NCBI GenBank assembly: GCA_963931925.1
Contig: OZ007573.1
Coordinates: 37,666,796 to 37,730,795, forward strand
Source of the DNA: Onchidella celtica
Taxonomy: Eukaryota > Mollusca > Gastropoda > Systellommatophora > Onchidiidae
Direction of reading: 5' to 3'
DNA: 64,000 nucleotides
Shown here: positions 10,226-33,400 of the stretch, one piece after another
Layout: each line of letters starts with the position of its first letter
How positions within the stretch are numbered: the stretch's first letter is position 1
Program-made: the position numbers and the translations under genes
The notes under the pieces: generated by a model
What the model was told of the DNA's origin: nothing
What the model saw: the letters and a program-made list of their open reading frames with translations, nothing else
The model's database searches: none

Positions 10226-10581
10226 CAACTGGAAATAAACTAGAAAAGACTACACTGGACAATTAATGAGTGGTACAAGAATAACTTTCAGAAGAAAAAA
10301 AAGACAATGTGGTAATATGGCCATAAGGTACATACCTTACTTTGCTTGGTAAATGTGATGTTTCATTCCTCTACAAGTTTTGGTTGATTCTAGTTCTTAT
10401 TTCATTGTCAAGAGTCACATAAAAAATTCACTTCTAACTTTAGTGTGCTGAGTGACCCTATCTTTGAGAGAGACTGGCTTGGGCACTGAAGCTACCTCTA
10501 AATCTGCCCTAGATCTATTATGTTCTTGCTCAATGTTGGGAGCATCACCATAAGGCATAGAGGGAGGAAGGCCTACAGCTG

Positions 10582-10705
10582 CGGGTAGCATAATTACCGC
10601 ATATCACTAAATATCACCGCACATCGCTAAATATCACCGCACATCGCTAAAAATATCACCGCACATCGCTAAATATCACTAAATATCACCGCACATCACT
10701 AAATA
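10582..10705 (+). repeat. Left terminal inverted repeat of the MULE
   Basis: Starts CGGGTAGCATAATTACCGC and then repeats a TATCACCGCACATCGCTAAA motif about four times. Matches the reverse complement of 32520-32596. The outermost 9-12 bp match poorly between ends; the inner 28 bp match exactly. Confidence 0.85.
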
Positions 10706-10776
10706 TTGGGGTGTATGCTTATATGACAATCTTATGCCATAATTTTGAATAGATCTAGTGGAACATTGGTGTTGGT

Positions 10777-10976
10777 TTGTTCCTATTGTGTGTACCATAT
10801 GCCATAAGAGTTAAACAGGGGGGGCAACTCCAGATGTCAGCTGGGCTAAGGCCACGCGACAACTGCGTGTGCGAGATGGGTCCTAAGCAGGCCCCACAGT
10901 ACCCTTGTGGAATTTGTGCTCAGGGTTGTGGTAACAACAGCATCGAGTGTTCATGTTACCAGAAATGGATTCACAG
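10777..10976 (+). CDS. MULE exon 1: first half of a PHD/RING-like zinc finger
   Basis: Open from 10777. Later in-frame ATGs exist and the true start is uncertain. It ends YPCGICAQGCGNNS then IECSCYQKWIHR at a strong donor (ACAG|GTAAGT, intron from 10977). The cut is inside an arginine codon, and the long exon at 27190 supplies the third base and RCV...FLCRNC. The joint product has C-x2-C, C-x1-C, H-x2-C, C-x2-C, a slightly irregular C4HC3 finger (C-x2-C is usual for the second pair). It sits 70 bp inside the left inverted repeat. A role in chromatin or DNA targeting is inference. Confidence 0.7.
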
Positions 10977-11544
10977 GTAAGTGTGTGTGTTTGTGTCCGA
11001 CTAGACAGGCTATTGCGTGTATGAGCTTTTTTCTTTCTCCCCTTTACACCCCTTTATTGGGGAATTTAGATCTAACAAACAGAGTGACGTCCCTTGTTTT
11101 GATTTTCAAACTTACAAATTGTTTGTAATAATTCATAACACTATGACACGCCTTATTCGTAACACAAATAATGACAAGAATATAAGAAAGCCAGTTTCAG
11201 AACACAACTTTCTTTTTCCAATTTCCTATAAATGACTTCAGCAAACTGAAAGTTGATTTCCAAGAAAGGGTATTCTGACAGCTGTATGCCAGATGAAGTG
11301 TAAAACAGGCGTGTGATAATAAAATTGCTTGTGCTGTTAGTTTGATTCCCATTTGTATATTTGGGGTGCGCTCTATGTGTCACAGGGCCGTTGTGACCGT
11401 TGTGTTATAAGCACTGTTCAGACAGACTCAAGATTAAGTGGTTTGTGTGTGTGTGTGTGTGTTTGTGCATGCACTTTCCTTGTGAAGAAACTATAGTTCT
11501 TTCCCAGCATTCAGTCTGGTCCCATAGCTTTTACAAGCCGTAGA
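10977..11544. other. MULE intron, unfilled 5' part
   Basis: AT-rich sequence with a short (GT)n run near 11443-11463. No coding or repeat homology seen. Begins with the exon 1 donor and ends where the SINE sequence becomes recognisable. Confidence 0.5.
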
Positions 11545-11723
11545 GGCGGTGAATTAATAATTCACCGTGTCAAGGGGGCAGTATAGGTAGGCGGAGCCCA
11601 TCTCTCTCCTACGGCTGACTTTAACCTTCTCCAACTTTCGTCAGGTACCCCTTTTACACCTGGGTGAGGTGAGGAAAGCAAGAGTAAAGTTTCTTTCCCA
11701 AGGACACAACGCCAGGTCGCGGC
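11545..11723 (-). repeat. tRNA-derived SINE, 3' part (split by an LTR insertion)
   Basis: Read on -, GACCTGGCGTTGTGTCCTTG then GGAAAGAAACTTTACTC is the kind of conserved central block found in many invertebrate tRNA-SINEs. It continues through the GTACCTGACGAAAGTTGG region. Its 5' tRNA-like head lies at 26961-27031, across the LTR element; the two parts abut once the LTR element and one GCGGC are discounted. The outer end is approximate. Confidence 0.7.
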
Positions 11724-11882
11724 TGTGTTGTACAGGATTTATAGGGCGTATTCTTTCTACTCTAGCCGTGACACGTGTTGTCTGTCCGCCATGTTGGTCA
11801 TCAAGTGCTTGCCGTTGGCGCTCCTCATTGCCAGGTTTATACAAGTTGCCACATTGCCTTGTGTGACTCAATTATCAGTACA
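11724..11882 (-). repeat. 3' LTR of Ty3 fossil 1
   Basis: 159 bp from TGTGTTGTACAGG to ATCAGTACA as read on +. Direct copy of 26802-26960 with three differences. Confidence 0.93.
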
Positions 11883-12083
11883 TCTCCCCCCTTCTGAAGA
11901 ATCTCGAAATTATATTGCAGATCCAGTATGCTCCTTGCTTACTGTAGTACTTCTCTTAACACTTGAAGAGTAATTTTACTGAAACAATGTAACACAAACT
12001 TCAAACAGTTTCATAACTAATTACAATAGGCTAAGTGCTACCATAATATATCCTTTATGGCTGCACCTTGAAAGCCACATTAA

Positions 12084-12326
12084 CTCTTTCCATACTGCAA
12101 TTCAGCCCAAATTAGTCCAAATGCGTCAGTCCGGGGGACCGATACATCGGCAAAAAGTACTCTCCTTGTTACCCCTGGGCATTTCAACGATACTGTGTCC
12201 ATCTAGCTTCCCAGTGTTTTTGTTGTTTGTGGTACAACCGATGCCACTATTACTGCACTTCAGCAGAAATTAGTCCAAATGCGTCAGTCGGAGGAACCGA
12301 TGTATCGGTGAAAAGTACGGAAAGAG
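12084..12326. mobile_element. piggyBac-type MITE, about 243 bp
   Basis: Bounded by TTAA at 12080-12083 and 12327-12330. The right end read inward is CTCTTTCCGTACTTTT; the left is CTCTTTCCATACT. Both halves carry AAATTAGTCCAAATGCGTCA and a GACCGATACATCGG-like palindrome. Non-coding. TTAA targets plus inverted ends point to mobilisation by a piggyBac transposase. Inserted near the 3' LTR of Ty3 fossil 1. Confidence 0.8.
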
Positions 12327-12330
12327 TTAA

Positions 12331-13218
12331 TATTCACATATGAGGCGCTTGGGCGCCTTGGCCTGTCGATTGGATCTTCTTAGGCCAATTCCCTTGGACG
12401 AACTTATCGCAGGGTGTGCTTTTGCAGGACTCAAAGTATGACCAGTCTTGTTTGTTTCAGAAGGACTGGCTGTTTTGTCTCCTCCTGCCTCTTTTGAATT
12501 TTCCACAAAAATCCTACGATCTATATGATCCTCTGTGGTTTCTGTCTCAACATCATGATCTGGAATATCATACTGAACTCCTTCTGGAACTCGGTAAAGA
12601 TGACGTCGATTTCTTCGCAACTCGCCTTGGTTTTCAGTCTTGACAATGTATGACCTTGGTGCTATTTTCTTTACAACTTCAGCTGGAGTTTTCCATTGTT
12701 TGTCCAGATCTGTTTTGCCAAGGACTGTGTCTCCTCTATCGAGTTCTGGTAGATGTCTTGCCCCATGTCGTTTGTCATAGTTTCTCTTATGGGCTTCCTT
12801 GGCCTTTCTGTCTCTCCTTTCCAGTTCTTTATGGTCTAACCCGGTATTATTCAGGTTTTGTGGCAAACATGGTAACGTGTTTCTTATTTTCCTGTTGAAA
12901 AGTAGTTCTGCAGGACTTATTCCCAGTTCCACCAATGGTGTGGATCTGTACGCAAGAATAGCGAGGAATATATCGTCTTGAGACAGTATTTCTTTTGCTG
13001 TTTTGACTGCTCTTTCTGCTTTCCCATTTGATTGTGGAAATCTTGGGCTACTTGTGACATGTCGAAAATTCCATTTCTTGGAGAATTGTACAAATTCATC
13101 TGATGTGAATTGTCTGGCATTGTCAGATACTACACAGCTTGGGATACCATATCTTGCAAAACAACACTTTAGTTTGCTGATCACTGTGAAAGAAGTTGTG
13201 TTGGGCAAGTACATAATC
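12331..13218 (-). pseudogene. Ty3 fossil 1: C-terminal part of integrase region
   Basis: On - this encodes the second part of the integrase catalytic core (CVVSDNARQFTSDEF, PQSNGKAERAVKTAKE) and the following C-terminal region, ending in a basic tail. The rest of pol lies beyond the Helitron. Fossil part; see the element entry. Confidence 0.88.
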
Positions 13219-13554
13219 TCTATATATCTATACTAATAAAAGAGAAACTTTACGACATTGCGCGCGCCTCTGTCGCTACTCCTCCGTTAATGTTGATTGT
13301 ATGGCCTTCAAATTTTATACAGTGCTTAGTATAGTCTGTGGTCGTGTCGCCGGCACATAAAATTTAAATACATTTGAGAAATAACAGAACGTTTGTTTCC
13401 GTTTTTGTGTTGCGACACATCAAATTTTCGGCAATTTTTTGTCATCGATTATAGTATTCTGTGCGCAAATTGCTTGAGCGATTACAGTCGCCGATTTTGT
13501 TGAATCGCCTCGCAATATAGCCGATTGTGCTAAACTGCCTCGGAATAGACCCCC

Positions 13555-13618
13555 AAATTACATGTCTTATCATGAGGACGCAGATCTACATGTCTTATCA
13601 TGAGGACGCAGATCTAAT
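13555..13618. repeat. 28-bp tandem duplication
   Basis: ACATGTCTTATCATGAGGAC plus GCAGATCT occurs twice head to tail in the Helitron 5' leader. Confidence 0.85.
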
Positions 13619-13864
13619 GATTTACGTGCACTGTACACCTTCAAGAATGCATTTTCTCATAATATTTCATCGACTGAAGTAATCAGACCTATTTAACTCA
13701 TGATGTTTTAAGCCAACGATTACCACCAACTTCCGCCGTCACACATTTTAAAACAGTGCACAACTGTGGTTAAGTTTCAACTTTGTTCTGATTAGTTTAC
13801 ATCTAGACTAGGTCTATATATCTGTGTTTTAGAATGTGTTTTCAATAGCCTATGCCTACAGTCT

Positions 13865-13970
13865 AGACTAGATCTAGGAAAGGAAAGATTCTGGATTAGG
13901 TCGGGAGATTGACGCCACAGTACAGGGCCAACGTTTCAAGCGGCAACGATTGTTGTACGTGGGTGGCCAT
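13865..13970 (+). repeat. Duplicate of the start of the Helitron ORF
   Basis: CTAGGAAAGGAAAG, GGAGATTGACGCCACAG and GGCCAACGTTTCAAGCGGCA here match 14106-14200, the first codons of the Rep protein. This copy has small insertions and lacks the ATG. The direct duplication (about 240 bp apart) also includes the AGTCTAGACTAGATCTA block upstream. Confidence 0.8.
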
Positions 13971-14102
13971 CACACATTTTAACTATTTAAAGCAGCGCCC
14001 AACAGCAGGACTTTCATTTCGTCGCTCAACAGCAAACCTTTTTGGCTTTGGTTAGGTTTCAGCTTTGTTCTAATTAGTCTAGACTAGATCTAAGTTTTTA
14101 AT

Positions 14103-17100
14103 ATGCCTAGGAAAAGGAAAGGGTCTGGATTAGGGAGATTGACGCCACAGGGCCAACGTTTCAAGCGGCAACAATTGTTGCATGTGGTTGGATCTGCTAC
14201 CACCAATGAAGATTCGGCAACTGAAGAAGATGGAATTGCCATGCAGTCTCTTCAAGCTATTCAGACAGTGCCTCAAGTGCCTGATGAGCTTGCTCAAGAA
14301 CGCCGTCCACAGGAAACGCCAGTCCCTGCCCCAGCTCCACACCCGCATGAAAGGCCACCCCCTGCCCTAGCTACACACCCGCAGGAAAGGCCAGTCCCTG
14401 CTCTAGATCCAGGAATTCCAATGGCTCTTAACTATGCACCACATGCATTTGTTCAAAGGCATAACAATGCCATTGGAGGGATGACAAAGATATGTCCCCA
14501 TTGTCATGCATCAAAATTTAAATTGGAAACTCCTGGAATGTGCTGTGGAAACGGTAAGGTAACTCTGACTCCTTATCCACCTCAAACTAAATATTTGCAC
14601 ACCCTCTTTCACCAGGAAACCCCTGACGCAGTACACTTTTTATCAAATATCCGGAAATACAACTGTGCTTTCCAGCTGACATCCTTCGGATGCAGTGAAA
14701 TTAATGTTCCAGGTTGGAATCCCCAATTCCGCATCCAGGGCCAAGTCTGTCATCGCATCGGTGGACTTCTACCAAATACAAATACTGACGCCAGTGTTGA
14801 CGCAAAATTTCTTCAGATCTATTTCATCGATGGGGAAATGTCTGAGGTAACTGCCAGAATGGGTGTTGTTGATGGTCTTCGACAAAACATTGTGAGGGCA
14901 ATTCAAGAGGAGCTTCATGCACACAATATTTATGTTCGTGAACTGAAAGCAGTGCATGAATTTGCATTACACAACAATTTGGAAAATTACCGCATCAGTA
15001 TTTCGAATCACAACCGTCCACCTGGAGAGCATGAAAGACGCTATAATGCCCCCGAGACGAGTGAGGTAGGTCTGCTTATGCCCAATGATCCTGTAGGTGA
15101 GAGAGACATCGTCTTGAGGACGCGTGATGATACCCTACAACGCATCAGTGAATTTCACCCTGCGTATGATACCATGCAATATCCCATACTATTTCCAAGA
15201 GGTACACATGGATGGAATTTGCAGATGAAATTCACAAACAATAACAAACTCACCATGCTGAAATTTTACAGCTTTCACTTTATGACACGACCAGGGAATT
15301 ACATTTTGCTCAGCAGAAGGCTACTGTAGCAATTTTTAGTTGATGTCTATGCCAAAATTGAAAGTGAACGCCTTTTTTACATTCGGCGTGAACAGGGCAG
15401 ACAGTTATGGTGCTCTGAGAGATACCTTCACCTCTGGAGATGGTGACCCTCGGAATGTTGGTCAACGTGTAATATTACCTTCGAGTTTCACTGGGGGACC
15501 CCGCTACATGTTTGAGCGACAGCAAGATGCAATGACATATGTCAGACAATATGGAAAGCCAGATCTGTTTATTACCATGACGACAAACCCCAAATGGAAG
15601 GAAATTCAGGACAACCTCTGTCAAGGACAACAAGCACATGATCGACCTGACCTGACTGTGCGCGTCTTCAGGCTAAAGCTACAGCATCTCATGGAAATTT
15701 AAAAAAATGGTGACTTCGGTACACTGCAAGCTTGGCTGTACTCCATTGAGTTCCAGAAGCGTGGTCTGCCCCATGCACATATTCTATTGTGGCTGACCAA
15801 GGACAGCAAGATAACACCGGAGCATTTTGATAAAGCAGTTGTTGCAGAAATTCCTGACAAGAATCAAGATCCTGAGCTGTACAATATTGTTACATCAAAC
15901 ATGATCCATGGGCCATGTGGTCAACAGAATGTAACAGCACCATGCATAAAAAATGGCACATGCTCTAAAGGATTCCCCAAACCATTTCTCCACCACACTG
16001 AAACTGGCACTGATTCTTATCCCAAGTATCGGCGGAGACATCCAAGTGATGGAGGCCATACCGCTGTCCTGCAATGTACACGAGAAGGAAGAAGAACAGA
16101 AACAGTGGTAGATAACAGATGGGTTGTCCCTTATAACCCTTGCCTTCTCCGTCAAATGAATTGCCATTTGAATGTTGAACTCTGTAGCTCTGTCAAGAGC
16201 ATAAAATATGTTTTGAAATATGTCCATAAAGGTTCTGACCAGGCAACATTCCAGGTAACAGACCAAGGAGAAAGGGATGAAGTCAGTGATTTTATCAATG
16301 CCAGGTATATTGGCAGTACCGAGGCAGCATGGAGAATTTTCCAGATGCCAATGCACGAACGTTACCCGCCAGTTATTCAGTTAGCCGTTCACTTGGAAAA
16401 TGGCCAACGGGTATACTTTACTGAGGATACTGCACAAGAGAGGGCTACAGCTGATCCACCAGCATCAACACTCACAGCCTTTTTTCAGCTCTGTCAGATA
16501 GACCCCTTTGCTGCTACTTTGCTTTATATAGATGTGCCACGTTTTTACACATGGGCCAACAAAACATGGAGTCGCAGGAAACGTGGAAAGCAAATAGATG
16601 GTGAGGATATTTTTGAAGCCGCAGCAATCGGTAGAATGTATACAGTTAGCCCCCGTCAAGGAGAGTGTTTCTTTTTGCAACTGCTGCTTCATCACGTGAC
16701 CGGTCCAAGGAGCTACAATGACTTAAAAATTGTGGACCAGAATGTGTACCCTACCTACAGAGATGCATGTTTGCAGAGAGGGCTTTTACTAGATGACAAT
16801 GTCCACCACTTAACTTTGGAAGAAGCATCAGTCAGTATGTTGCCCAAACAGATGCGTAGTCTGTTTGCGGTAATTTTGGTGCACTGCAACCCAAGCAACC
16901 TTATGGATTTATGGTCAAGGCATACTGAAACCATGTCAGAAGATTTTGCTCACAGTCTTGGTGCAGACCGCAATGATGATATTGTTCTTCAAGCTGCTTT
17001 GGCAGAGATAGAAGATATGGTGTTGGACATGGGAGGACTTCAGCTCACACATTATGGCCTTCCTCACCATGAAAGAGATGCTGTGCAGAGAGCTGGAGCG

Positions 17101-18176
17101 GACTACAGGCGGGAAATGACATATGACATCGTGAAGGAGAAGGAAGTCTCTGCGAGAAATATCCAGTTACTTAATACAGAGCAACGTATTGTCCATGATG
17201 AGTTTGTTACAGCTGCACTTAATTCTGAGAAAGGGTTGTTTTTCCTGGATGCGCCTGGGGGATGTGGTAAAACATTTCTTATCCACATCATTCTTGCATC
17301 TATAAGATCACAACGAAGAATTGCTATTGCCACAGCCAGCAGTGGTCTTGCAGCTACCCTCATTCCTGGAGGCCGCACTATTCACAGCACTTTCAAGGTA
17401 CCCCTTAACTTGACGCAGTGTGATGTTCCAATGTGTTCGATCAAGAAAGGAACTTCCCTCGCTAAACTCATCAAGGGCTGTTGTGCCATCATTGTAGATG
17501 AAGCGCCCATGAGTAACAAGTTGATTTTTGAAGCCCTTGACAGATCACTTCGTGACATCACAGGAAGGGAAGAAATAATGGGTGGAATTACTACTTTACT
17601 ATGTGGAGACTTCAGGCAAATATTACCTGTAGTGCGTGGTGGCACAAGGGCCAACATTGTGAACTCATGCTTAAAGATGTCCAATCTATGGCAGTATGTC
17701 AAGATTCGAAAACTTCAAACAAACATGAGAGTTCATCTTGGTGGTGAAGCAGAAGCTGGTCAATTTGCTGAATTCTTGCTTGATCTTGGCAGTGGTACAT
17801 ATCCATTGTGCAAGGAACCAGACAGCATATTTCTGAATTCATTTGGAACCACAGTATTAACTACAAATGACCTAATTACTTCTGTATATCCAGATTTTTT
17901 GCAGAACCATACTAGCTCATGGCTGGCAGAACGGGCCATATTGGCACCACTAAATGACACTGTAGCCACCATCAATGCCAGACTTACTCAAATGATGCCT
18001 GGGCTGTGCAAAGTTTACACCTCCTTTGATAGCACTGTTACGGAAGAGGAGGCAGTGCATTATCCCACAGAGTTTCTTAATTCAGTAGAGGTCGCTGGGC
18101 TTCCGTCTCACAAACTTACCATTAAAGTTGGGATGCCAGTTATGATTATGCGGTCTCTCAACCCACCACGTCTAAT
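14103..18176 (+). pseudogene. Helitron Rep-helicase, main part (frameshift and stop in Rep)
   Basis: Rolling-circle replication initiator fused to a superfamily 1 helicase. ATG at 14103 opens a basic, then proline-rich leader (MPRKRKGSG). A zinc-finger-like ICPHCHASKFK...GMCCGNGK and the Helitron-like-N region (HPAYDTMQYPILFP) follow. The frame changes between about 15300 and 15345, and a TAA lies at 15700-15702. The HUH motif is intact in FQKRGLPHAHILLWL (15740-15795). The helicase has Walker A DAPGGCGKT (17248-17274), Walker B VDEAPM and the GDFRQILPV motif. The coding is cut at 18176 by the hAT element; its end is at 22250-22616. Confidence 0.9.
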
Positions 18177-21100: not shown

Positions 21101-22249
21101 TGTGATTTTTGTTCAAAGATTACTTCACATTATAATATACCGGTAATATTATTGATTTGTTTTTGAGTTTTTGTTATGTATGCCTTTCCATTTTTCACTC
21201 TTATTAATGCTTTTTATATAATACTTTTACTACTGCATGCCTACTAGAACTTTTTCACAACTTGGGTCTGACATTTTAATGACATTGAACATAATTTATA
21301 CATTCTTTTCCATACAAAATACTAATGTTCATTATTGTTATGGTCCCACTCCAACACCTTTGCTTTTTTCTACATCTTTTCTAGGCATGGCCAATGTTGG
21401 AGGACTTGCAAAGTCGCTTTTATGGCGGGTGCATATCCCAAAGAGAATGCTCCCAATTCTACCTGGACGACTTCACCCATGCTGAAAAAGTGGAGCTTCA
21501 AGACTTGTTTGGGCAGGCCTTTGCCCTTGCAGAGGCAAAGCTAGTGAAATACTTGACTCCTGAAGGACAGCCTGGAATCCAATTTCTGAAGGATATCCAG
21601 TTCTTCAATCCTAACAGATTAATTTTTTTTTCAGGAGCAGAAGATGTAACTTCATCAATTGCAATCAAAGAACTTCAGAATATTCCAGAAGATGAAATCA
21701 AGAAGTACATGACCAAGCTTGGTCCAAATGCTGTTCAAATGTCAGTATCATCAGTGAACCCTCATCTCTTCTGGGCATCAGTGACCGATGACCTTCCTAA
21801 CCTGGCTGCTCTTGCCAAGCCACTTATTTGTTCAACTGTGAATTCAGCTGATGCCGAACGCAGTTTCTCTCTTTATAACCTAATTCTTTCCCCCAGAAGA
21901 CGAAGTCTTAATGAGGAGAATATGAAGCGCCTTTGTTTTCTTGCCTACAATCAGTTTGTTGGCCCAGATTTTTAGATGTAATGATTTAATGAAATCTGGT
22001 CTGGACGTTCGATGTTCATTTGTGAGAATTTTATGATTGTTTGTTCTTTACAATGTAACACAATACATTGCAACTGTGTATTTTGTTTTATTAAATGTGC
22101 TGAAACAGGAAAAAATGTTTCATTTTTGTGATGGATGTTTGTTTGTATGCACCTAGAGAGGTTGCAATTTTTTTGCAATTTTTAGGGTGATAACATTGCA
22201 TTTTTTTGCGTTTTTTTTCTTTTAAAATTGCAATTTACCGCGGGGCCAG
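18177..22249 (+). mobile_element. hAT element with BED finger, about 4.07 kb
   Basis: Ends CTGGCCCC (18177-18184) and GGGGCCAG (22242-22249) are inverted copies. TCTAAT flanks both sides (GTCTAATC / GTCTAATG, 7 of 8), close to the 8-bp duplication expected for hAT. Removing the insert restores the helicase reading NPPR-LMNGTRC, which confirms the boundaries. TTGCAATTTTT motifs recur near both ends. It carries a five-exon transposase on +. Confidence 0.9.
18654..21975 (+). pseudogene. hAT transposase, five exons, one frameshift
   Basis: Exons 18654-18942, 19464-19717, 19997-20434, 20850-21099 and 21385-21975 all have GT/AG ends and compatible phases. Exon 1 is a BED-type finger (YCKWCNIVLDHHRKSS, SAHFTTDKHKKRK) resembling the CGGBP1 branch of hAT. 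Exon 2 ends with a DEMSDDN block holding the first catalytic Asp. Exon 3 has NTDNASYM and ITCLAHVMNL (second Asp and the C-x2-H of hAT). Exon 5 has the C-terminal dimerisation region (SADAERSFSLYN). In exon 2 the frame shifts near 19560 (after QFLKK); otherwise it is open. Probably recently disabled. Confidence 0.87.
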
Positions 22250-22616
22250 TCTAATGAATGGCACAAGGTGCACTGTCTGCAAATCTACCCCCAATGCTTT
22301 GATAGTGCAGATATCATCAGGACCGTATAAGGGGGAAACACATGCCATTCCACGGATAATTTTGCAGCCTTCTGACAGTGCATTGCCCTTCACTTTTCAA
22401 CGGCGTCAATTTCCCGTTCAGCCATGTTTTGCCATAACTATAAACAAGGCTCAGGGCCAGACTTTAAAAACCATGGGCTTGGATTTAACATCTCCAGTAT
22501 TCACACATGGAATGCTATATGTGGCACTGTCCAGGACAGGAACAAATAAATCTGTCTTTGTGTTGGCTGCGGAATATCAGACTCGCAACGTCGTCTATCC
22601 AGAAGTTCTACAGTGA
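22250..22616 (+). pseudogene. Helitron helicase, C-terminal end
   Basis: Resumes the helicase after the hAT insertion: LMNGTRCTVCKSTPNALIVQ, then CFAITINKAQGQT and MLYVALSRTGTNKSVFVLA, the last conserved helicase motifs (V and VI) of Pif1-like Helitron proteins. Ends with TGA at 22614-22616; followed by a roughly 95-bp 3' tail. Confidence 0.9.
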
Positions 22617-22711
22617 AGGTATGTCACAATAGTTAACCCATTGTCATCATCTGTCACTGTCACACTGCCTTTTCTTTCTTTCCTATTCCATTCGTAGAAC
22701 GGGTAATCAGG

Positions 22712-25700
22712 CTTGTCTGGAATAATAGTCTTCCAATACTAAGTATGATTTCTTTTGAAATTCACAAATGTCAACTCCCACTTTTTGAAATGGTCGGTCA
22801 GGTAGCATTGACGGTAACAGCGGTTCTTTCCTCTGTGTAGGTTTCTTTGTAATGCAGTGTTTACATCTTGATACCATTTCTTTGATTTCATGGCTGATTT
22901 GGGGCCACCACACACTTTGATTTGCTCTTTCTCGGCATTTTGTTATTCCAAAGTGACCTTCGTGGATGATTTCTTTTATTCCTTGTCTCATCCAGTCATT
23001 GAGTATGGAATAACAATCCTGTCTGTTCGTACCAAGATGCCATCCACTAAGCTGAGTTCTCCTCTGAATGGATACATACTCAATGCTGCAATTTTCACAT
23101 CTTCTCTGTATTCTGGCCATCCATGTTGGACATATTCCATCGTTGTGTTGAGGCATTCATCCATTCTGCTTTCTCTTCTAATCTGGTCTAGTTTTGCATC
23201 TGATACTGGCCATGATGACATAACCTCATACACATACTGTTGTACATTTTCTTGTAGTTCAGTTTCTGTGCTGATTTTTGATGGACTTCTGGACAATGCA
23301 TCAGCAACAACCATGTCTTTCCCAGGAATATGCACTGCTTTGACTTTAAATCTCATGAGTCTCATTAAAAGTCTCTGACATCTGATGGGGCACTCTATGA
23401 GGTGTCTGTTGTTGATCAATGGCACTAAAGGTTTGTGGTCAGTGTTGAGAACAAAATGTTCCATTCCAACCAAGTACTTCTCAAATTTTTCACAAGCCCA
23501 CGTAGCAGCTAAACATTCCTTCTCTATTTGGGCATACTTCATCTCTGCTTTAGTCAGTGTTCTTGAGCAATAAGCAACTGGTCTCCAACTTTCTTTGTGT
23601 TTCTGAAGTAGAACTGCTCCGAGTCCATAACTGCTAGCATCAGCACTCACTACAGTTTCCTTTTGCAAATCAAAAAATGCTAATGTGTTTGAATCTGACA
23701 GTAATTCTTTGACTGTTTCGAATGATTTCCTTTGATCGGCTCCCCAGTACCATGCTGAGTTCTTTTGTAAAAGTTGGTTCAACGGATTCAGTATTGTTGA
23801 GAGGTTCTTGATATACCTGCCAAGATACTGGACCATTCCTAGAAACCGTCTTAGCTCAGGAATATCTTTTGGCTCTTCCATGTTTTTGATATCACTAGTA
23901 TTGAACCCATGAAATTCGCGGGGGGGGGGGGGGGGGGGGGGGATAGCTATCATGTAAAGACATGATGAAAGGTGGACTTCAAGATCTAGATCTAGATCTA
24001 GAGCTAGCCTAGATATCTGTTAGTAGATATAGATTTAGATCTAGAATCTAGATCTATTATAAAAATTGAAAATCTTCATCAACGTACCTGAACAAATGGA
24101 TCATCACGAATGTTATGGATGGACTCGGCATGTTTTTGCCACACTGTCACTGCAGCAAGAACCACGAATGTTATGGATGGACTCGGAAGCACGGTTTCAA
24201 ATTTGGGGAACCGGACGTTGAGATCGCACGGTGGACCGCAAATTCAGTGACGTCATGCCACATAAAAACTCACGCCCGGATGGTATTTATTTGGAACAAA
24301 TGCAAATTTGCGTAGTTCAAAAAAATACTTACGGAGAGTGTTCAGCAATGAGTGTAGCAAGGAATCAACTTCAGACCAAAAGAAATTTGTATGCAAAATT
24401 TGAGCTCGATTGGTGCACAGATAGCCGAGCTACGGCTTTTACAAAAAAAGCGAGTTTTTTTTTTATAATAGATTTATTTTCTCTGGATCAGGCCTCACAC
24501 CCTTTTCTGAGATTATATGTCCGAGGAACTTGACTTCACTTTGGTAGTATGTACATTTATTTTCATTCAGTTTTAATCCTGCCTTCTGGAGCTTTTCTTT
24601 TACTATTAGCAATGTCTTTGTGTGGCTTGCTTCATCTTTGGTATGGATGAGCATGTCATCAAAATAAAATACGACTCCATCTATGTTCTCAAGTATTTTC
24701 TCCATCACTTTCTGGAATATTTCAGGTGCTGACGAAATTCCAAATGGAAGTCTTTTGAAGTAAAATCTTCCCATTGGTGTAATGAAAGTTGTAAGTTTTG
24801 CACTCTCTTCATCAAGTGGTATTTGTAAATAACCTGAAGCCGCATCCAGCTTCGAAAATACTCTTGAACCCTTTAGTTTGTAAATGATGTCGTCCATTGT
24901 TGATAAGATGTACCGTTCCCTTTCGACGTTTTGGTTGAGTTTCTTGAGATCCACACAAATCCTAATGTCTCCTGAAGGCTTTAAGACTGGAACCATGGGG
25001 GATACCCATTCTGTTGGTTCATTGATTTCTTCAATAATATCATTATCTTTCATCCTCTGGAGTTCTGATTCTACTTTCTTCATAAGGGGTATAGGCACTC
25101 TACGTGATACAGGTACAGCATAAGGCCTGGTATCACTCTTTAGTTTTATCTTCACTGGTTGACAGTTTACTTTGCCACACTGGGTTACACTGTTCACCAA
25201 CCTCACTAATCCCATGTGAATAGCCGTAGATCTGCTAAGGAGATTACAAGTTGTATTCTTGACTACATACATGTCCACTTTGCTGTCATTAACTTTTACT
25301 TTAAATCTTCCCAAAGTACAAATTTTTCCTGCTGGGCTCAGCAGACTTGCCTTTGATACATCAAGTGAAGGTTGACCTAGTTGTTTCCATGTCTGTTGAT
25401 TCAGAATGTTTACATCAGCACCAGTGTCGATCTTGAATTCTATCATTTCCCCCAAAATTTCAACATTGGTAGTCCAGGGTGGAACGTTTGAAACGACGGA
25501 GCCAATAAAGTAATCTGAACAATCCTCAAGTTCTTCTTGACCCTGTCTCAAATCTACTTCTTGGACTTGTTTTGGAGTAATTGGACTTGGTCTGTTGGAT
25601 TGTCTACTCAGTCGACACATTGATGCGTAGTGATTCTGTTTTTGACAGTTATAACATTTCTTGCCAAATGCTGGACATTTACCCCAGGCATGAGTTTGTC

Positions 25701-26463
25701 CACATTTAGTGCATTCTTTTGATGAGTGACCACTGGCCTGACCTTGATACTTCCTGTCATTAAAGCTAAATCTTGCTTCAGGTTTTGGGTCCCTGTACTT
25801 CTTCCCTCTGTGAGGCTTTTCTTTCCCTTTTTTCATTTTTACTGCATCTATTTGTGCACTTGCTTCATTTTGTGTCTTGATCAGTTCATGATTAAGAGCA
25901 ATTTCTTTGGCCTTCTCTAATGACAAGTCTTCTTTTAATTGTAGTTTCTGACATACTGATTTGTCTTTTAGTCCTATGACCAATCTATCTCTTATCTGTG
26001 TGTCTCTATCAGCAAATTCACAGTATTCTGCCAGCTTGTAAAGAATTCTAATAAATTCTTCAACTGTTTCACCCTCCTCTTGGATACGTTTGTGAAAAAT
26101 CGATCTCTCCCAAATTATGTTCCGCTTTGGAATGAAGTGTTCTTCAAACTTTTGTAGAACGCAATCAAAATCGTTTTTCTGTCCTTCATTTTCGAATGTA
26201 AAACTGGCAAAAATATCTTCAGCTTCTTTGCCCATCGAGTAGACTAGTGTCGCAACTTGGACTTCCCCACTGTCTTTGGATAATTTACTGGCTGTTCTGT
26301 ATCTGTTAAATCTCGTCCTCCATTCTTTCCACTTCGGATGCTGGAAATCTATAGGTTCTGGGGGATTGAGTTTAGGCATCTTGTTTCTAAATGTTACTGT
26401 TATTTTGACTGTAAGTTTCTTAATCTGCAGGTCACGGGTGGGAAACCTTCCAAATTTGGTCAA
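22712..26463 (-). pseudogene. Ty3 fossil 1: gag, protease, RT, RNase H, start of integrase
   Basis: On -, gag starts near 26379 (MPKLNPPEPIDF) and has a knuckle CYNCQKQNHYASMC. Protease KIDTGADVN, RT KRLPFGISSAPEIFQ and YFDDMLIHT, RNase H CDAS-like block and DHKPLVPLINN, then the integrase HHCC (GHFGITKC, CKHC) follow. Gag and pol appear to share one long frame. A 0.6-kb unrelated insertion (23891-24470) separates RT from RNase H, and the Helitron separates the integrase. Fossil part. Confidence 0.9.
23891..24470. mobile_element. Unclassified insertion of about 575 bp in Ty3 fossil 1
   Basis: Starts after the host block CCATGTTTTTGAT and ends at a T-rich run before AGATTTATTTTC. Contains a G run of about 24 (23918-23942), a (TAGATC)n patch (23976-24060) and a 21-bp direct repeat, ACGAATGTTATGGATGGACT plus C (24107 and 24163). 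The T-rich right end could be the tail of a - strand retroposon, but no tRNA-like promoter was found. No coding. Confidence 0.5.
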
Positions 26464-26786
26464 AACAAACTGGTGGTAAATCTAGATTAAATCTATAATG
26501 TCTAGATCTAGATCTAACCTATATCACTTCAACAGTGCTCGAACAGTTCTTGGTCTAGATCTATTATGCTAGAGTTAGTGGTTATTGTCTAGATCCAGCC
26601 CTAGATTAGATCTGCTCAGTAGTAAACTAACAGTCACAGTTCACACAGCACAGTGGCCCACGTGGGTAAAATGCAAGGTTAACACAACACTTCGTTCAGG
26701 ACCCGTTTGGTCCCTTTTAGGCTTTAAAGTATAGATCTATTGATCATCTAGATGTCCTAGAAGATGCTTAAAATTTCCGTCGATTT

Positions 26787-26801
26787 TCACTTCTGACACC
26801 A
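26787..26801 (-). promoter_or_regulatory. Primer-binding-site-like motif of Ty3 fossil 1
   Basis: TGGTGTCAGAAGTG on -, directly after the CACA end of the 5' LTR, the position and form of a tRNA primer site in Ty3-type elements. Confidence 0.8.
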
Positions 26802-26960
26802 TGTGTTGTACAGGATTTATAGGGCGTATTCTTTCTACTCTAGCCATGACACGTGTTGTCTGTCCGCCATGTTGGTCATCAAGTGCTTGCCGTTGGCGCT
26901 CCTCATTGCCAGGTTTATACAAGTTGCCACATTGCCTTGTATGACTCAATTATCAGCACA
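26802..26960 (-). repeat. 5' LTR of Ty3 fossil 1
   Basis: 159 bp, about 98% identical to 11724-11882. Followed outward by GCGGC, the target duplication. Confidence 0.93.
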
Positions 26961-27031
26961 GCGGCCATGGCTCGAACCCGGGACCTTAAGATCTCGAGCC
27001 CGAAGCACTAACCACTCGGCCATGGCACCTC
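26961..27031 (-). repeat. tRNA-derived SINE, 5' head
   Basis: On -, TGGCCGAGTGGTTAG (A box) and GGTTCGAGCC (B box) lie at tRNA-like spacing in a 5' GGAGGTGCCA context. Ser/Leu-type tRNA resemblance. Continues, across the LTR insertion, into 11723-11545. The internal RNA polymerase III promoter boxes are both preserved. Confidence 0.85.
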
Positions 27032-27189
27032 CTTTTTTGTACTCCAAGTTTTATAAAAACAGGGAGTACTTTACGATGGGAATGAGAAAAATGTCTGTGT
27101 GTGTGTAAACAAACATCATGTAGTTCTACTACTACTAGTAATACTACTACTGTCTACTAATGGCATGTGTTCATTTTGATGTTTTGCAT

Positions 27190-30100
27190 GCGCTGTGTTC
27201 CTATGGATCTCGATCTGCTGGCGACCTGGACCACCACTGAGGATGAGGTGTCCCTCAACTTCCTGTGTAGAAACTGCGCCTTTGCCAATGGATCTTATGA
27301 CATTACTGCATCGCTACACAGGCTGTTTGCTGCATCCGACTCCCAGCCTGAATCTGTTCTTCAGGCAGTTGTCTGTAGTGAGCGCCTGCTACTGCAGACT
27401 TACACAGTGGGCCTGCCTGCACAAAGAACCACCACCTCAGCAGTTCCTGGTGTTCGTGATGCGGTGTCAACAGAGATCCTTAGGAAGTTCTCCCCCATCA
27501 TGCTTGCTGACCACCTCCCACTTGCAGTCTTTGGTGATGGGAACTGCCTCTACAGGGCTATCTCAAGAGGACTTTTTGGACACGAGAACCACCACATGCA
27601 CATCAGACTACTGACTGCACTGGAGATCGCGGAGTATCCAGCGTACCACGATGCAGCCTCACCAGACTACATTGACCTCATCAGAGAGCCGACTTTAGTG
27701 AATGACCCCTACCCCAACATTCTGCGCTCTACCTGCAAGCAGCGGGGGTGGAGTGAGATTCTGCATCTGTATGCAGCCAGTGCAGCACTACAGAAGGCGC
27801 TGCTGTCCTACTGCCCACCAGTTCTCAGTGAACACTACCTAACCAGACCACTGTCACGTAAGGTCTGCGGACGAGGTGTGTCCTCAACAGCAACGCCAGT
27901 TGTCAAAATCATGTGGACTATGGGACACATGCCGAACACCCAGGATGAGTTTGTGCCTAGCCACTTCGTGGTACTGCACTGCCTTGCACCACCCAGGATG
28001 AGCTTTGTGGATCTCACTGATTCAAAACCCTCACATAGTGCTGCCAGGAAGACCTCTACCCTGCGACCAACCACATCTGATAAGGACACCTTCAGTAGGG
28101 ACTATTCTTTTAGTAAGCTGTCAGATTCACAAGCTGCCAGTGACAGTGAGCAGTCAGATTCACAAGCTGCCAGTGACAGTGAGCAGTCAGATTCACCAGC
28201 TGCCAGTGACAGTGAGCTGTCAGAGTCGCCACTTGGGGGAATCAAACCTACATCACCACCTGCTGCTGGTCCTTCTCCTGTGTTTACTGATGATACCCTG
28301 CCACCTTCCCCAGCTGGTAGTGATAGTGCACCCTCAGATCATATTAGCATGGACACTGACTATCCTACTGGCAGTCAAGGGTATGACTTGCCCATTCCTG
28401 GGAGGTTCCTGAGCATGCCAGATTTGGTGTCTGTCATTCAGTCTGAGAAAAAACACAAGTCGCAGCGGATACCAACTGGACTGAAGCAGAATAAGTATTT
28501 CTGCTTCGACAATACAGACAATATCGAACACCAACGCAATGGTAAACCAAGTTGCTTTTGGGATGATTGTGGTGCCTGGAAGGCTATTGCCACTAACAAA
28601 TCGTACGTGCTGCGTGGCGAATCAACACTGACTGAACTAAAACATAGACAGGGACAGTATGGACTCATGAAGAGACAGATGGTGGATGGCAAAAGCAAAC
28701 AAGTGTTCACTGTCCTACAGCAGCAGCCTCCACCTGAGCTCATCATCGTAGTCCACAGAGCATATGCTGTTCACACTGTCTCCGAAGACTACAAGCGGAG
28801 GATTTTTTGGATCGAAAAAAACCAGGATGACGCTGACAGTGACACAACCGCAGTAGCGGAGTATGTGGGATCTTTCCCGACTGCTGCCATGGATAGGATG
28901 GAGTCACGACGTGACAATGTCCCCATTCGAGACAGTAAACGGTTCACGGACGGTGTCAACGTGCCGAGTGGTCCACAGTCCCATAAGTCGCCATCACCAG
29001 CTGGCAGTGGCAGTGCATTCGCACATATCAGCATGGATACTGACTATCCTATTGCCAGTGGAGGATATGACTTGCCCATTCCTGGGAGGTTCCTAAGCAT
29101 GTCAGATTTAGTGTTGAACATCAACGCTGATATAAAAGAGAAGTCGCAGCTGATACCTACTGGACTGAAGCAGAATAAATATTTCTTCTTTGACAACAGT
29201 GACAATATGAAACGCCGACGCAATGGTCAACCAAGTCGCTTCTGGGATGATTGTGGTGCCTGGAAGACTGGTGCCACTAACAAATCGTACGTGCTGCGTG
29301 GCGAACTGTCTGAACTGATACATAGACACGGACAGTATGGACTCATGAAGAGACAGATGGTGGATGGCAAAAGCAAACAAGTGTTCACTGTCCTACAGCA
29401 GCAGCCTCCACCTGAGCTCATCATCGTAGTCCACAGAGCATATGCTGTTCACACTGTCTCCGAAGACTACAAGCGGAGGATTTCTTGGATAGAAAAACCC
29501 GATGGCACTGACAGTGACATGACAGCAGTAGCAGAGTATGTGGGCTCATTTCCAGGCCGAGCTCCCCATGGAAATACAAAGAGTACTGCACCGAAGGATT
29601 ATATTTGGATGCCACCCGCTGCAATGGATCGGATGAAGGAAGAGGCAAGGGACAATGCCCCCAGTCAAGTGTATAGGAAACTGATTTTGAACAGTGATGA
29701 TGTATTCAGTGCTCCAAGGTCCTACACTCAGGTGAAGAATGCCAGATACCGTCAGAAAAAGGAACAGTCGGCTACAGGAAACCGGGCCAACTTTGCTGGC
29801 CATGTACAGACAGTTGAGACCATGGTGCAAAGTCACCCATTTGTACAGTGGTTAGTCCATGCTAAGGGCAAGGTGCCTTCTATCATCTTGTACACAGAAG
29901 AACAAATGATAGACATTAAGCGCTTCTGCTGTTCTGGACCTATTGGAGCGACAACAGTTTTGGGATTTGACAAGACTTTCAACATTGGAGATGTGCATGC
30001 GACTTGTGCTGCCTTCAAGAACTTGGCAGTGACCCGATATGACATCAACGACCACCCGATCTTCCCTGGCCCCATGTTTTTACATGGCAACTCAGACTAC

Positions 30101-30922
30101 AGATCATACTGTGCCTTTTTTTCTCATCTGGCTGGAAAGCTCAACGATGCTCCTTCATCACCAATCATCGGCTCCGACGAGGAGCAAGCCATGAGGAAGG
30201 CTATGAAGACAGCCTTCCCAGACTCGCCAACGCTTGTGTGCTCACGGCATTTGAGAAAGAACTGCATGGATTACCTGAAGGATAAAGTTGGTGTGAATGA
30301 CAGGGACAGGTCTCGGATCGTGAACTCTGTATTCGCCAAGGACGGAATAACTGGGGCTGCTGACGACATTGTGTTTGCATACCGACTGGGTGAGACCAAG
30401 AAGATCTATGACGTGACAGGCATTGGCTTTGATCGATACTTTCAGGACCGGATTGTGCCACTTTTGCATGAAAACCTGAACACTCAGTTGAAGACATCTA
30501 CCTCCGGCCTGACAACATGGACAAACAACAACTGTGAACGTTTGAACGGAGTCCTGAAACACGCAGTCAACTGGAAACCACAGCCACTGACAGACCTGGT
30601 GGACACACTTTATGAAGTTGTTAAAGGGCAATACAAGGACTTGGAGATGAGTTTGGTTGGACAGGGAAACTACAGGCTGACAGAGAACTTTAGACACTTT
30701 GCTGTTCCCATTGCCATCTGGAATAACAAAACCACAGAGCAACGACGACAACACTTCCATCGTTTCATGCAGGCTATCCTGAAGAACAATTCTAGACTGG
30801 TCACTTCAACTGATGGACAGACGACAGTGATTGGTCCAGGAGTTGCAGGTGGAAAGAAGCCAGGGCAGAGGAAGAGGAAGAGGAAGAGGAAGAGGAAGAG
30901 AAATGCCAAGACAACTTATTGA
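27190..30922 (+). CDS. MULE long exon: zinc-finger half, OTU-like protease, duplicated domain, MULE transposase
   Basis: Open for 1244 residues; the frame itself runs from 27167. Residue numbers count from 27167. RCV (9-11) and FLCRNC complete the finger begun in exon 1. An OTU-like domain follows: FGDGNCLYRAIS (Cys127), later SHFVVLHC (His near 266). Then come three Ser/Asp-rich 11-mers (SDSQAASDSEQ), two copies of a 180-residue domain (28340-28880 and 29030-29560; LPIPGRFLSM, GLKQNKYF, FWDDCGAWK, GQYGLMKRQMVDG) and a MULE DDE core: Asp935 in GFDKTFN, Asp1004 in GSDEEQAM, CSRHLRKNC, Glu1124 in NNCERLN. A KRKRKRKR tail may be a nuclear signal. No stop. The acceptor reads GCAT, not AG, so splicing may be lost. 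Confidence 0.85.
28120..28222 (+). repeat. 33-bp coding minisatellite, three units
   Basis: Three in-frame repeats encode SDSQAASDSEQ and variants in the linker after the OTU-like domain of the MULE protein. Confidence 0.85.
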
Positions 30923-32400
30923 CTGTGACCAGATGGTTTGGTCTTGTACACAAGAAGTTTCTTTTCCGAATCGAGTACGGTACCGGTTTGAATGGTTATC
31001 GAGAGTGGGGGAATAGAATCCGGAATTTGAGGAGTTCTCGACGAAGAATCATTAGCAGACTTCGACATAGTGAACAAAATGCGCACTCACCTTTAGGCTG
31101 AACAAAAATAGGGAAGGCTAAACACACACAAGCCAAGACCTATCGGCCATGGTCAAGATTACACACACAAGCCAAGACCTATCGGCCATGGTCAAGATTA
31201 GAGTACCAAGATTTCCGCACATCCAGAGACACTTCCTATGAACTTCAATGCACTTCATACAAGTTTTTGTGGACAGTGTGGGACGTCTTGAGATGGCTGT
31301 TCGCAGTTAATGGGACGTTAAGCAAAATGTAATAATGTTGTGTTTGTCAGTTCATTTCTAGTCATATGGGAGAGTGCTCAAGCCCAGTTTGTGTTTAAAG
31401 CTTGTATTTAAAGCTATCCCAGTCTAGTCTCCATCAGTACATCTTCAAGACGCGATAATCATAAGTCAGGCCGAGGCTTACACACTGAATTATTTTGTAC
31501 ATGTAAACAAAGTGTTACCTTCGGTCAATGTCAGATCATGAAATACTTGCCCAATATCTAACTGGATATTCAACTCTTTTCAGCCTGCCTGAAAGTGCTC
31601 TGGGTTGATGTTATCTCTTCACATTGTAGTGCCTTGAACCGACAGGCCTGACTCTCACTTTTCTTTTTGTAGGAAGAGTAAATGCCGTGTTTAAGACTAA
31701 GAGGCATGTTTTTAATGCACATTTTATACAAAGTTGATTTAAACAGATGTCTTGTTGTATTTGTCAGTTCATTTCTAGTCCTATGGGTGAGTGCTCAAGG
31801 CCAATTTGTGTTTATACTGTCCCGTTTTAGCAACCTACTTCACTATTTTTTTCAATGTTTTTATTTTCATATCTGTGTTGTTGAAGTTGAATGGCCTATA
31901 GATGTGCTTTTAAACTTTTATACTAAGTCAGGTCCCACCCATTTCGGCTTGTTGTACACATTTTTGTGACTGTTACATCTGAACTTGCACTTGAATTTAG
32001 GGCTAAGTAAGCCTCATGTCTTTTTTAGGTGCCCTAGTCTTTTCTCTTGTCGATGATTTTCTTCTCAGTTGTATTTATGTTGTTATTTTGTTGCTTCTTT
32101 GGAGCTTTTAAGGGTTTTTTTCTTTCTAAGACATGGATTGTGTTTGTAATTCAAATTTAGTAATAATCATCACTCATCATATTCAAATTTTTTGTCCATG
32201 ATTTCTTTTTCCCTTTCCAGAAGGTCTTTGAAAAGATTATCATTTTTTGCACTTTTACTTTTAGTTGTTTATGTCAATTTGTTCCAACTAGGAGCAATTC
32301 TATTAGAATAAGAATTTGTTTCTAATTTTAATTGAATTCTGTTTTATAAATAACTTTTGGAAGGCATTTCTTGTTCTTTGGTCATTTACTAATGTAACAG
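30923..32400. other. MULE 3' region, non-coding with internal duplications
   Basis: No gene. ACACACAAGCCAAGACCTAT plus CGGCCATGGTCAAGATTA occurs twice in tandem (31122-31200). A 60-bp block with TCAGTTCATTTCTAGTC and GAGTGCTCAAG recurs at 31339-31398 and 31754-31813. The rest is AT-rich. Open frames such as 31682-31969 show no known motif. Confidence 0.6.
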
Positions 32401-32515
32401 GAGACAGAGAGAGAGGCAGAGAGAGACAGGGACAGAGAGAGACACACACACACAGAGAGAGAGAGACACACAGAGAGAGAGACAGAGACAGTCAGAGACA
32501 CACACACACACACCC
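32400..32515. repeat. (GA)n / (CA)n microsatellite
   Basis: GAGAGA and ACACAC runs alternate just inside the right MULE end. Open frames here are low complexity. Confidence 0.9.
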
Positions 32516-32519
32516 GATA

Positions 32520-32596
32520 ATTGGTGATATGCGGTGATATTACGCGATGTGCGGTGATATGCGGTGATATTTAGTGATATGCGGTAAATAGCCGGT
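32520..32596 (-). repeat. Right terminal inverted repeat of the MULE
   Basis: Reverse complement of the left end; GCGGTGATATTTAGTGATAT then GCGGTAA. Contains four GCGGTGATAT-type motifs. Followed at once by CCTACAGCTG. Confidence 0.85.
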
Positions 32597-33400
32597 CCTA
32601 CAGCTGAACTAGATCTAGAGTCGTTTCAGGTCAAACCGACCATCAGACAAAACCGGCCAATTCTTACTGCGATGTTTACTTTCGTTTCGTGTCGACTTAC
32701 TTTTAATGCTTGTTTTACAAAAAACATGCCACCGTCTTCTTGGATGCTTCTACTTCCGTTTTCAAGTGCGGCAGAGCGGGAAGTTACGAAAACTCATCGA
32801 TTTCAGTGAAATATCTGCAACATTTCTCCAAAACGTGAGTACTCCCTCCATCACTGTTCATTGCAGCCATTGACAGGAAGTCTCGTTTTAAGTGAGACTT
32901 GGGCTAACCATAAATAGATTTAGGTCAAACATGACTTCTATCCCCTTAATAGTAACATGGAAGCCACTTTATGTGGCTGGGCGGTGTTCACCTTCATTTT
33001 TGCCCACGTGTTGGGGTGGCCGGTTTTACCAAATAATTTTGTGGCGATTATGGTGAAACCGGCCATGATTAAATTTGTTTAAAAAATTAAAAATGGGAGG
33101 CATAAAGAGAGAGAAACCTGAAAAAGCAGCTTACAATTTGTTTCATCATCATCTACTTTTCTCCCTCCACACTCACTTCTTCATCCTTCTCATCCTCCCA
33201 CCCCCCCCCTCCTTTTCCCCCTCCCCCGGCTCATCATCATCACATCGTCATCTCCTTTTCCTCTGCGTCTTCCTCCTCCTCATCATCATTATCAGCATAA
33301 TCGTCGTCGTCGTCATCATCATCATCAAAAATCGTCATATTAGTGTGACTGCGAAGTGTTAGTTAGTTTATTTATTTTACTTTGTTACAGGGGCGCCACA

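What the first reader, a model, noticed from the sequence alone, without database searches (positions are those of the whole stretch)
10572..32606. A Mutator-like element whose protein joins a zinc finger, an OTU-like protease, a duplicated middle domain and a MULE transposase
Seen: one uninterrupted frame carries FGDGNCLYRAIS with a later SHFVVL (OTU-type Cys and His), two copies of a 180-residue domain, and a full MULE triad with CSRHLRKNC. Ends are inverted and flanked by a 10-bp repeat. Known: OTU domains cleave ubiquitin-like tags; MULEs in plants sometimes carry ULP-type proteases. Inference: the protease may protect the transposase or act on host chromatin factors. I do not recall a described animal element with this exact architecture.
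Basis: partly seen in the sequence, partly recalled or inferred. Interest (0 to 1): 0.9.

Follow-up and report, generated by a model that had tools for sequence, protein, structure and literature searches.

The report
Jumping gene with built-in ubiquitin protease
An animal jumping gene of the Mutator type makes one protein that joins the DNA-cutting enzyme to a domain folded like an enzyme that removes ubiquitin tags; related proteins in other animals have the same plan, so it is a real but little-described family rather than a one-off.

Summary

It is not unique: 17 of 23 relatives found join OTU to this transposase, some named Branchiostoma and Macrobrachium. OTU Asp, Cys and His are invariant in a 22-row alignment. 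OTU and DDE distances correlate (r = 0.77), yet each domain rejects the other's tree, so the parts have also been shuffled within the family. The OTU looks like a kept working part rather than a captured passenger. Dupeyron et al. 2019 already list one cnidarian MULE (MuDR-6_HM) with an 'Ovarian Tumour Gene'. New here: PHD half, defined ends, doubled middle domain, breadth. The window's own genome could not be searched.

The parts
10572..10581 (.). left copy of the 10-bp target-site duplication CCTACAGCTG
   Evidence: exact match to 32597-32606, directly outside the inverted ends
10582..10702 (+). 5' terminal inverted repeat with four ~20-bp sub-repeats (starting 10611, 10631, 10653, 10683)
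10876..10976 (+). predicted exon 1: MGPKQAPQYPCGICAQGCGNNSIECSCYQKWIH plus a split codon, first half of a PHD finger; donor GTAAGT at 10977-10982
   Evidence: spliced with exon 2 it matches Pfam PHD over model positions 1-47 of 47, E 0.0068, 16.8 bits (below the cut-off of 24)
10977..27189 (+). predicted intron, now holding the nested insertions; the phase-consistent 3' end reads AT, not the canonical AG
   Evidence: sequence; inferred from the PHD match across the join
11724..26960 (-). nested Gypsy LTR retrotransposon (159-bp LTRs 11724-11882 and 26802-26960, 3 differences; 5-bp duplication GCGGC at 11719-11723 and 26961-26965); not part of the MULE
14094..18234 (+). Helitron-type ORFs lying between the Gypsy ORFs (PIF1-like helicase and Helitron_like_N in 15703-18234; 14094-15329 has no Pfam match); not part of the MULE
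27161..30922 (+). main coding frame, 1253 aa stop to stop (predicted exon 2 from 27190): half PHD - OTU - linker - middle domain x2 - MULE DDE
27191..27304 (+). second half of the PHD finger (RCVPMDL...FLCRNCAFANGSYDI)
   Evidence: alone it has no Pfam match
27356..28036 (+). OTU domain as modelled (aa 66-292); D126 (27536-27538), C129 (27545-27547), H268 (27962-27964)
28112..28224 (+). Ser-rich linker made of a 33-bp tandem repeat
   Evidence: TRF 3.4 copies, 95% matches
28340..28819 (+). middle domain, extra (first) copy, lacking the C-terminal stretch of the unit
29024..29575 (+). middle domain, copy 2, the one collinear with the single copy of relatives (to PHGN)
29789..30691 (+). MULE/Mutator DDE transposase domain; D937 (29969-29971), D1006 (30176-30178), E1126 (30536-30538), CxxH at 30239-30250
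31122..31200 (+). 39-bp repeat, two identical copies, between gene and 3' end (a GA/CA-rich array follows at 32401-32508)
32521..32596 (-). 3' terminal inverted repeat with two diverged sub-repeats (32521-32540, 32541-32560)
32597..32606 (.). right copy of the 10-bp target-site duplication

Best explanation
This is a once-mobile Mutator-superfamily DNA transposon whose single protein is PHD - OTU - middle domain (here doubled) - DDE transposase. Shown: ends, target duplication, OTU and DDE folds (predicted models), conserved catalytic-type residues, and the same fusion in most relatives found. Inferred: the middle domain(s) and the helical stretch after them bind the ~20-bp sub-repeats in the ends, the DDE domain cuts and inserts, the PHD finger docks the complex on histone tails, and the OTU domain acts in cis as a deubiquitinase, removing ubiquitin from the transposase itself (so it escapes degradation) or from histones and repair factors at the excision or target site. 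The OTU is a selected working part, not a captured passenger, although members of the family have exchanged parts. This copy is probably no longer autonomous: a Gypsy sits in its first intron and the expected splice acceptor lacks AG.
Against: No enzymatic or transposition data. The OTU alignment rejects the DDE tree (AU p = 0.017) and the DDE alignment rejects the OTU tree (AU p = 0.0004), so the two domains have not simply been inherited together; recombination within the family, or long-branch error, must be allowed for. P0017 has the OTU on a different MULE backbone. In Pfam scans of the 23 relatives only P0003, P0007 and P0010 clearly pass both the OTU and the MULE cut-off, and P0017 only at the OTU cut-off itself. 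The fold and DNA binding of the middle domain are not shown. Its two copies show only mild constraint (dS 0.157, dN 0.091). No second copy from the same genome could be examined.
Confidence: 0.57

Rival explanations
1. The OTU is a captured host gene fragment or passenger (Pack-MULE style), without a role in transposition.
For: Plant Pack-MULEs carry captured gene fragments (PMC6431247, passages); the OTU sits on another MULE backbone in P0017 and the OTU and DDE trees reject each other.
Against: The OTU is in frame at the same place in 17 of 23 relatives, and D, C and H are invariant in 22 rows, with OTU divergence close to DDE divergence (mean identity 0.36 against 0.40). A useless passenger would lose these residues.
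Confidence: 0.09
2. The ends and the coding region belong to different elements brought together by nesting; the frame is the gene of another element, or a host gene, between unrelated inverted repeats.
For: The region is a pile of nested elements; no second copy with the same ends and gene was seen.
Against: The pieces between the ends, on either side of the Gypsy, hold the two halves of one PHD finger, the OTU and the full DDE in one orientation, with a perfect 10-bp duplication outside; where Table 1 of Dupeyron et al. gives MULE duplications they are 8 to 11 bp.
Confidence: 0.08
3. A domesticated host gene derived from such a transposon.
For: Long intact frame; a near-identical transcript-derived protein exists; host genes derived from MULEs are known (PMC10027918, passages).
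Against: Intact ends and target duplication frame it as an element; the linker repeat differs in length (22 residues fewer in P0015); the predicted acceptor lacks AG.
Confidence: 0.05
4. The OTU works as a self-processing protease that frees the transposase from the PHD-OTU part.
For: GG occurs in 15 of 23 stretches just before the middle domain against 15 of 157 linker windows; some viral OTU-like proteases both deubiquitinate and process polyproteins (recalled).
Against: 8 of 23 stretches lack GG, including this protein's first copy; P0008's GG lies at a different place; the residues before it do not resemble the ubiquitin tail (LRLRGG, recalled); the motif may just be the start of the folded domain.
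Confidence: 0.08

Closest known systems
MuDR-6_HM (group 14 of Dupeyron et al. 2019, PMC6446971)
   Same: MULE transposase with an 'Ovarian Tumour Gene' motif, one ORF (Table 1); no other row of that table names it
   Different: There: Cnidaria, zinc finger '-', TIR none, TSD not indicated. Here: PHD finger over two exons, clear TIRs, 10-bp TSD, doubled middle domain.
Ginger1 DNA transposons (PMC2836005) and OTU-bearing Helitrons/Helentrons
   Same: Transposon protein fused to an OTU protease
   Different: Gypsy-type integrase or Rep/helicase instead of MULE DDE; in Ginger1 the OTU is C-terminal, and the one Ginger1 with a PHD finger in its Table 1 has Ulp1, not OTU
Mutator elements with a Ulp1 protease (plants, hydra, lancelet)
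   Same: Mutator transposon carrying a protease of the ubiquitin/SUMO-protease class (named in PMC2836005)
   Different: Ulp1 (SUMO) instead of OTU
Rehavkus
   Same: PHD finger in a MULE-like transposase and repeats before the 3' end (Dupeyron et al.)
   Different: 9-bp TSD; no OTU listed; here the repeats before the 3' end are short
Phantom
   Same: Animal MULEs, TSD 8-10 bp, sometimes a FLYWCH finger (Table 1); a bracovirus protein is the best viral fold match to the model
   Different: No OTU listed in Table 1; no FLYWCH match here

Membership tests
Mutator/MULE superfamily | MULE DDE domain with two Asp, Glu and CxxH | tested here: met
Mutator/MULE superfamily | 8-11 bp target-site duplication | tested here: met
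   10 bp, exact; range from Table 1
Mutator/MULE superfamily | terminal inverted repeats | tested here: met
   35 nt at 94% plus sub-repeats
Mutator/MULE superfamily | several copies with the same ends in the genome | not tested
   The genome search did not complete (13 tries)
OTU cysteine protease | OTU fold | tested here: met
OTU cysteine protease | catalytic Cys and His (and nearby Asp) | tested here: met
   D126, C129, H268 invariant in the 22 rows of A2
OTU cysteine protease | cleaves ubiquitin or ubiquitin-like chains | not testable with these tools
   needs an enzyme assay
PHD finger | Cys4-His-Cys3 zinc finger | tested here: inconclusive
   spliced exon 1 + 2: PHD model 1-47 of 47, E 0.0068 but 16.8 bits under cut-off 24; the spacing CSC before W-x-H is unusual for a PHD (recalled pattern)
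MuDR-6_HM group | same clade in the transposase tree | not tested
   MuDR-6_HM sequence not available here
Phantom | FLYWCH finger and Phantom-clade transposase | tested here: inconclusive
   no FLYWCH match at E up to 1, but FLYWCH is not in all Phantoms; no tree with Phantom sequences was made
Rehavkus | PHD, 9-bp TSD, minisatellite before the 3' end | tested here: inconclusive
   PHD likely, TSD 10 bp, only short repeats at 31122-31200 and 32401-32508; no tree made

The most novel reading that the evidence does not exclude
PHD-OTU is a self-contained 'chromatin docking plus deubiquitinase' module that animal MULEs share and swap (family DDE in 17 of 23 relatives, another MULE backbone in P0017, and OTU and DDE trees that reject each other), and which these transposons use to edit ubiquitin at the chromatin of their own excision and target sites; in some members the OTU may also cut the protein at a GG junction to free the transposase, and the doubled middle domain in this element would match its end repeats by reading two sub-repeats at once.
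Probability: 0.18. Interest if true: 0.75.

Novelty: new variant of a known kind. Interest (0 to 1): 0.42.

Why it matters
Unrelated transposon groups (Ginger1, Helitrons, Mutator) have picked up OTU or Ulp1 proteases, and Ginger's authors proposed that the ubiquitin pathway takes part in transposition. A family in which an OTU with invariant catalytic-type residues is fused to the transposase gives a direct handle: one point mutation in one protein tests whether deubiquitination is needed to transpose. It also adds MULE-type transposases in Branchiostoma (P0004, P0012, P0021), where Dupeyron et al. reported finding none, though the Ginger paper cites Repbase for a lancelet Mutator with Ulp1.

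Tried and rejected
Window's own genome for other copies: the same request was sent 13 times and never answered, so copy number and the ends-with-gene test are open. Viral contigs: 5 stretches matched a pattern, none encoded a relative. ARAGORN found no tRNA at 26900-27200, though the sequence beside the Gypsy looks tRNA/SINE-like to me (recalled pattern). Middle domain as a WRKY-GCM1/FLYWCH finger: no Pfam FLYWCH match, and the Cys of DDCG is Ser in P0021, so zinc binding by it is unlikely; one copy against the PDB by sequence gave E 0.54 or worse. The full-length model was poor in the OTU part (ten-residue blocks of pLDDT 34-65 over residues 71-260), hence the separate OTU model. Homolog searches scored only the 7988 and 7990 candidates sharing most words, so 23 relatives is a lower bound. 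Papers: 10 of 10 searches used; 8 papers opened. Among these 8 only PMC6446971 links a MULE to an ovarian tumour gene; other listed papers were not opened. Seen of PMC6446971: outline, abstract, passages and all of section 6 with Table 1; of PMC2836005, PMC6431247, PMC6875170, PMC11069148, PMC11943222, PMC5148889 and PMC10027918: passages only. The Phantom paper is not held; what I say of Phantom is from PMC6446971 or marked as recalled.
Full report
What was checked. The frame at 27161-30922 (+) is 1253 residues from stop to stop. Pfam places OTU (PF02338, 24.3 bits, cut-off 23.3) at residues 125-212 and MULE (PF10551, 27.7 bits, cut-off 27.6) at 933-1034; DUF7056 matches below its cut-off in the middle domain. 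Both main hits are only just above their cut-offs, so I tested them by structure.

Ends. CCTACAGCTG stands exactly at 10572-10581 and 32597-32606. Inside it the two ends align inverted (score 86; maximum 25 in 500 mononucleotide shuffles of one end). Both ends are built from a ~20-bp unit: four copies left, two diverged copies right; these are all 6 matches in the window at up to 3 mismatches.

Nesting. 11724-26960 is a minus-strand Gypsy retrotransposon with 159-bp LTRs (3 differences) and a 5-bp duplication GCGGC; between its ORFs lie Helitron-type ORFs at 14094-18234. The MULE proper is therefore 10582-11723 plus 26961-32596.

The zinc finger. Upstream of the Gypsy, 10876-10976 encodes MGPKQAPQYPCGICAQGCGNNSIECSCYQKWIH and is followed by GTAAGT. 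Joined in phase to 27190, where the main frame reads RCVPMDLDLL...FLCRNC, it matches the whole PHD model (E 0.0068, 16.8 bits, under the cut-off of 24). Four of 23 relatives show a PHD match: P0012, P0019 and P0023 as whole proteins at E 0.023-0.048, P0021 only when its N-terminal piece is scanned alone (E 0.0039, model 1-47); P0019 starts inside the finger. None passes the cut-off. P0009 begins with a stretch like exon 1. The dinucleotide before 27190 is AT, not AG, so this copy may not splice as its relatives do; without exon 1 the protein would start within exon 2 and lack half the finger.

The middle domain. In the relatives it occurs once; the window's second copy is the collinear one and the first is an extra in-frame copy. 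The two copies differ more in the first 94 codons (dS 0.24, dN 0.14) than in the other 64 (dS 0.05, dN 0.03), which suggests partial homogenisation. P0015, which carries a Trinity transcript name in EukProt and is 91% identical over this part, has the residues of the first copy and 22 fewer linker residues; its last residues do not match and I take them for an adapter artefact (recalled). The fold is predicted as mainly beta after a short helical start; its function is not known, and DNA binding is inferred only from its place before the DDE domain, where FLYWCH fingers sit in other MULEs (FLYWCH is listed in Table 1; its place is recalled).

Relatives. Three searches gave 23 proteins, a lower bound because the first two scored only the candidates sharing most words. 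17 of 23 have the OTU Cys motif and at least one motif of this DDE (counted: P0001-P0005, P0007-P0014, P0018, P0019, P0021, P0023). P0006 has the OTU His half and the DDE; P0015, P0016 and P0020 end before the DDE; P0022 matches the OTU part only (E 1.7e-6) and has no Pfam match; P0017 has an OTU 46% identical to that of P0003 but a transposase that BLASTP does not align with it beyond a weak stretch (E 0.23), while Pfam calls it MULE at 43.3 bits. Pfam's cut-offs are passed for both OTU and MULE in P0003, P0007 and P0010, and in P0017 with OTU exactly at the printed cut-off; the Branchiostoma proteins have MULE scores of 18.0, 18.4 and 23.1 bits, under the cut-off, and are placed by homology and motifs. 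Named sources are Branchiostoma (P0004, P0012, P0021), Macrobrachium (P0009), Elysia (P0018) and Mytilus (P0022).

Do OTU and DDE travel together? For the 14 sequences with both domains complete by motif (13 of the 17 relatives plus the window; P0009, P0010, P0014 and P0018 dropped), OTU and DDE distances correlate with r = 0.773 (0 of 5000 permutations as high), mean identities 0.36 and 0.40. Against this, the maximum-likelihood trees differ: the OTU alignment rejects the DDE tree (AU p = 0.017) and the DDE alignment rejects the OTU tree (AU p = 0.0004). So the domains keep similar pace, but parts have probably been exchanged between members, or the trees suffer from long branches. This fits P0017.

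Reading. Invariant catalytic-type residues at a constant place in a fast-diverging family argue that the OTU works for the transposon. Which ubiquitin it removes is not shown. I favour action in cis on the transposase or on chromatin at the ends, because the protein also starts with a PHD-like finger. A self-cleavage role is a long shot: GG precedes the middle domain in 15 of 23 stretches against 15 of 157 linker windows, but 8 stretches lack it and P0008's lies elsewhere.

What is known. Dupeyron et al. 2019 (PMC6446971, Table 1) list MuDR-6_HM from Cnidaria with 'Ovarian Tumour Gene', zinc finger '-', TIR none, TSD not indicated; no other row names it. The Ginger paper (PMC2836005, passages) reports OTU in Ginger1 and Helitrons and Ulp1 in Mutator elements of hydra, lancelet and plants, and suggests a role of the ubiquitin pathway in transposition. 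In ten searches of the library (listed under tried and rejected) I found no description of a PHD-OTU-MULE family; Repbase reports and subscription papers are not held. Verdict: observation confirmed; a new variant of a known kind; interest 0.42.

Noticed in passing
P0012 (PIN4, Branchiostoma lanceolatum): A protein annotated as peptidyl-prolyl isomerase NIMA-interacting 4 is mostly this transposon's OTU-MULE protein with a rotamase end: a gene model that runs through an inserted element, or a real fusion.
   Followed up: partly
P0017: PHD-half-like start and OTU of this family joined to a different MULE transposase: the OTU part seems to have moved between MULE backbones.
   Followed up: partly
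OTU and DDE alignments of 14 sequences: Each domain's alignment rejects the other's tree (AU p 0.017 and 0.0004): a sign of exchange of parts within the family, or of long-branch error.
   Followed up: partly
11724-26960: Gypsy element with nearly identical LTRs (3 differences in 159 bp) inserted in the MULE's predicted intron and holding Helitron-type ORFs (14094-18234): nested layers.
   Followed up: partly
26961-27030 and 11660-11723: The Gypsy seems to have landed in a short tRNA-like, SINE-like sequence (CATGGCTCGAACCCGGGACC...); ARAGORN finds no tRNA at 26900-27200.
   Followed up: no
33344-35590: Intact 748-aa frame of a pogo/Tigger-like transposase (DDE_1, HTH_psq) just right of the MULE, with a linker of near-identical repeats (ASTSEDPPSVPSQ...).
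   Followed up: no
8095-9201: piggyBac-like transposase frame (DDE_Tnp_1_7, E 9e-54) just left of the MULE.
   Followed up: no
27188-27189: The phase-consistent 3' splice site of the predicted intron reads AT instead of AG, so this copy may be inactive or use another site.
   Followed up: no
O92526 (Bracoviriform inaniti, BFVD): Best viral fold match to the full-length model (E 3e-10), in line with the MULE that Dupeyron et al. mention from a polydnavirus.
   Followed up: no
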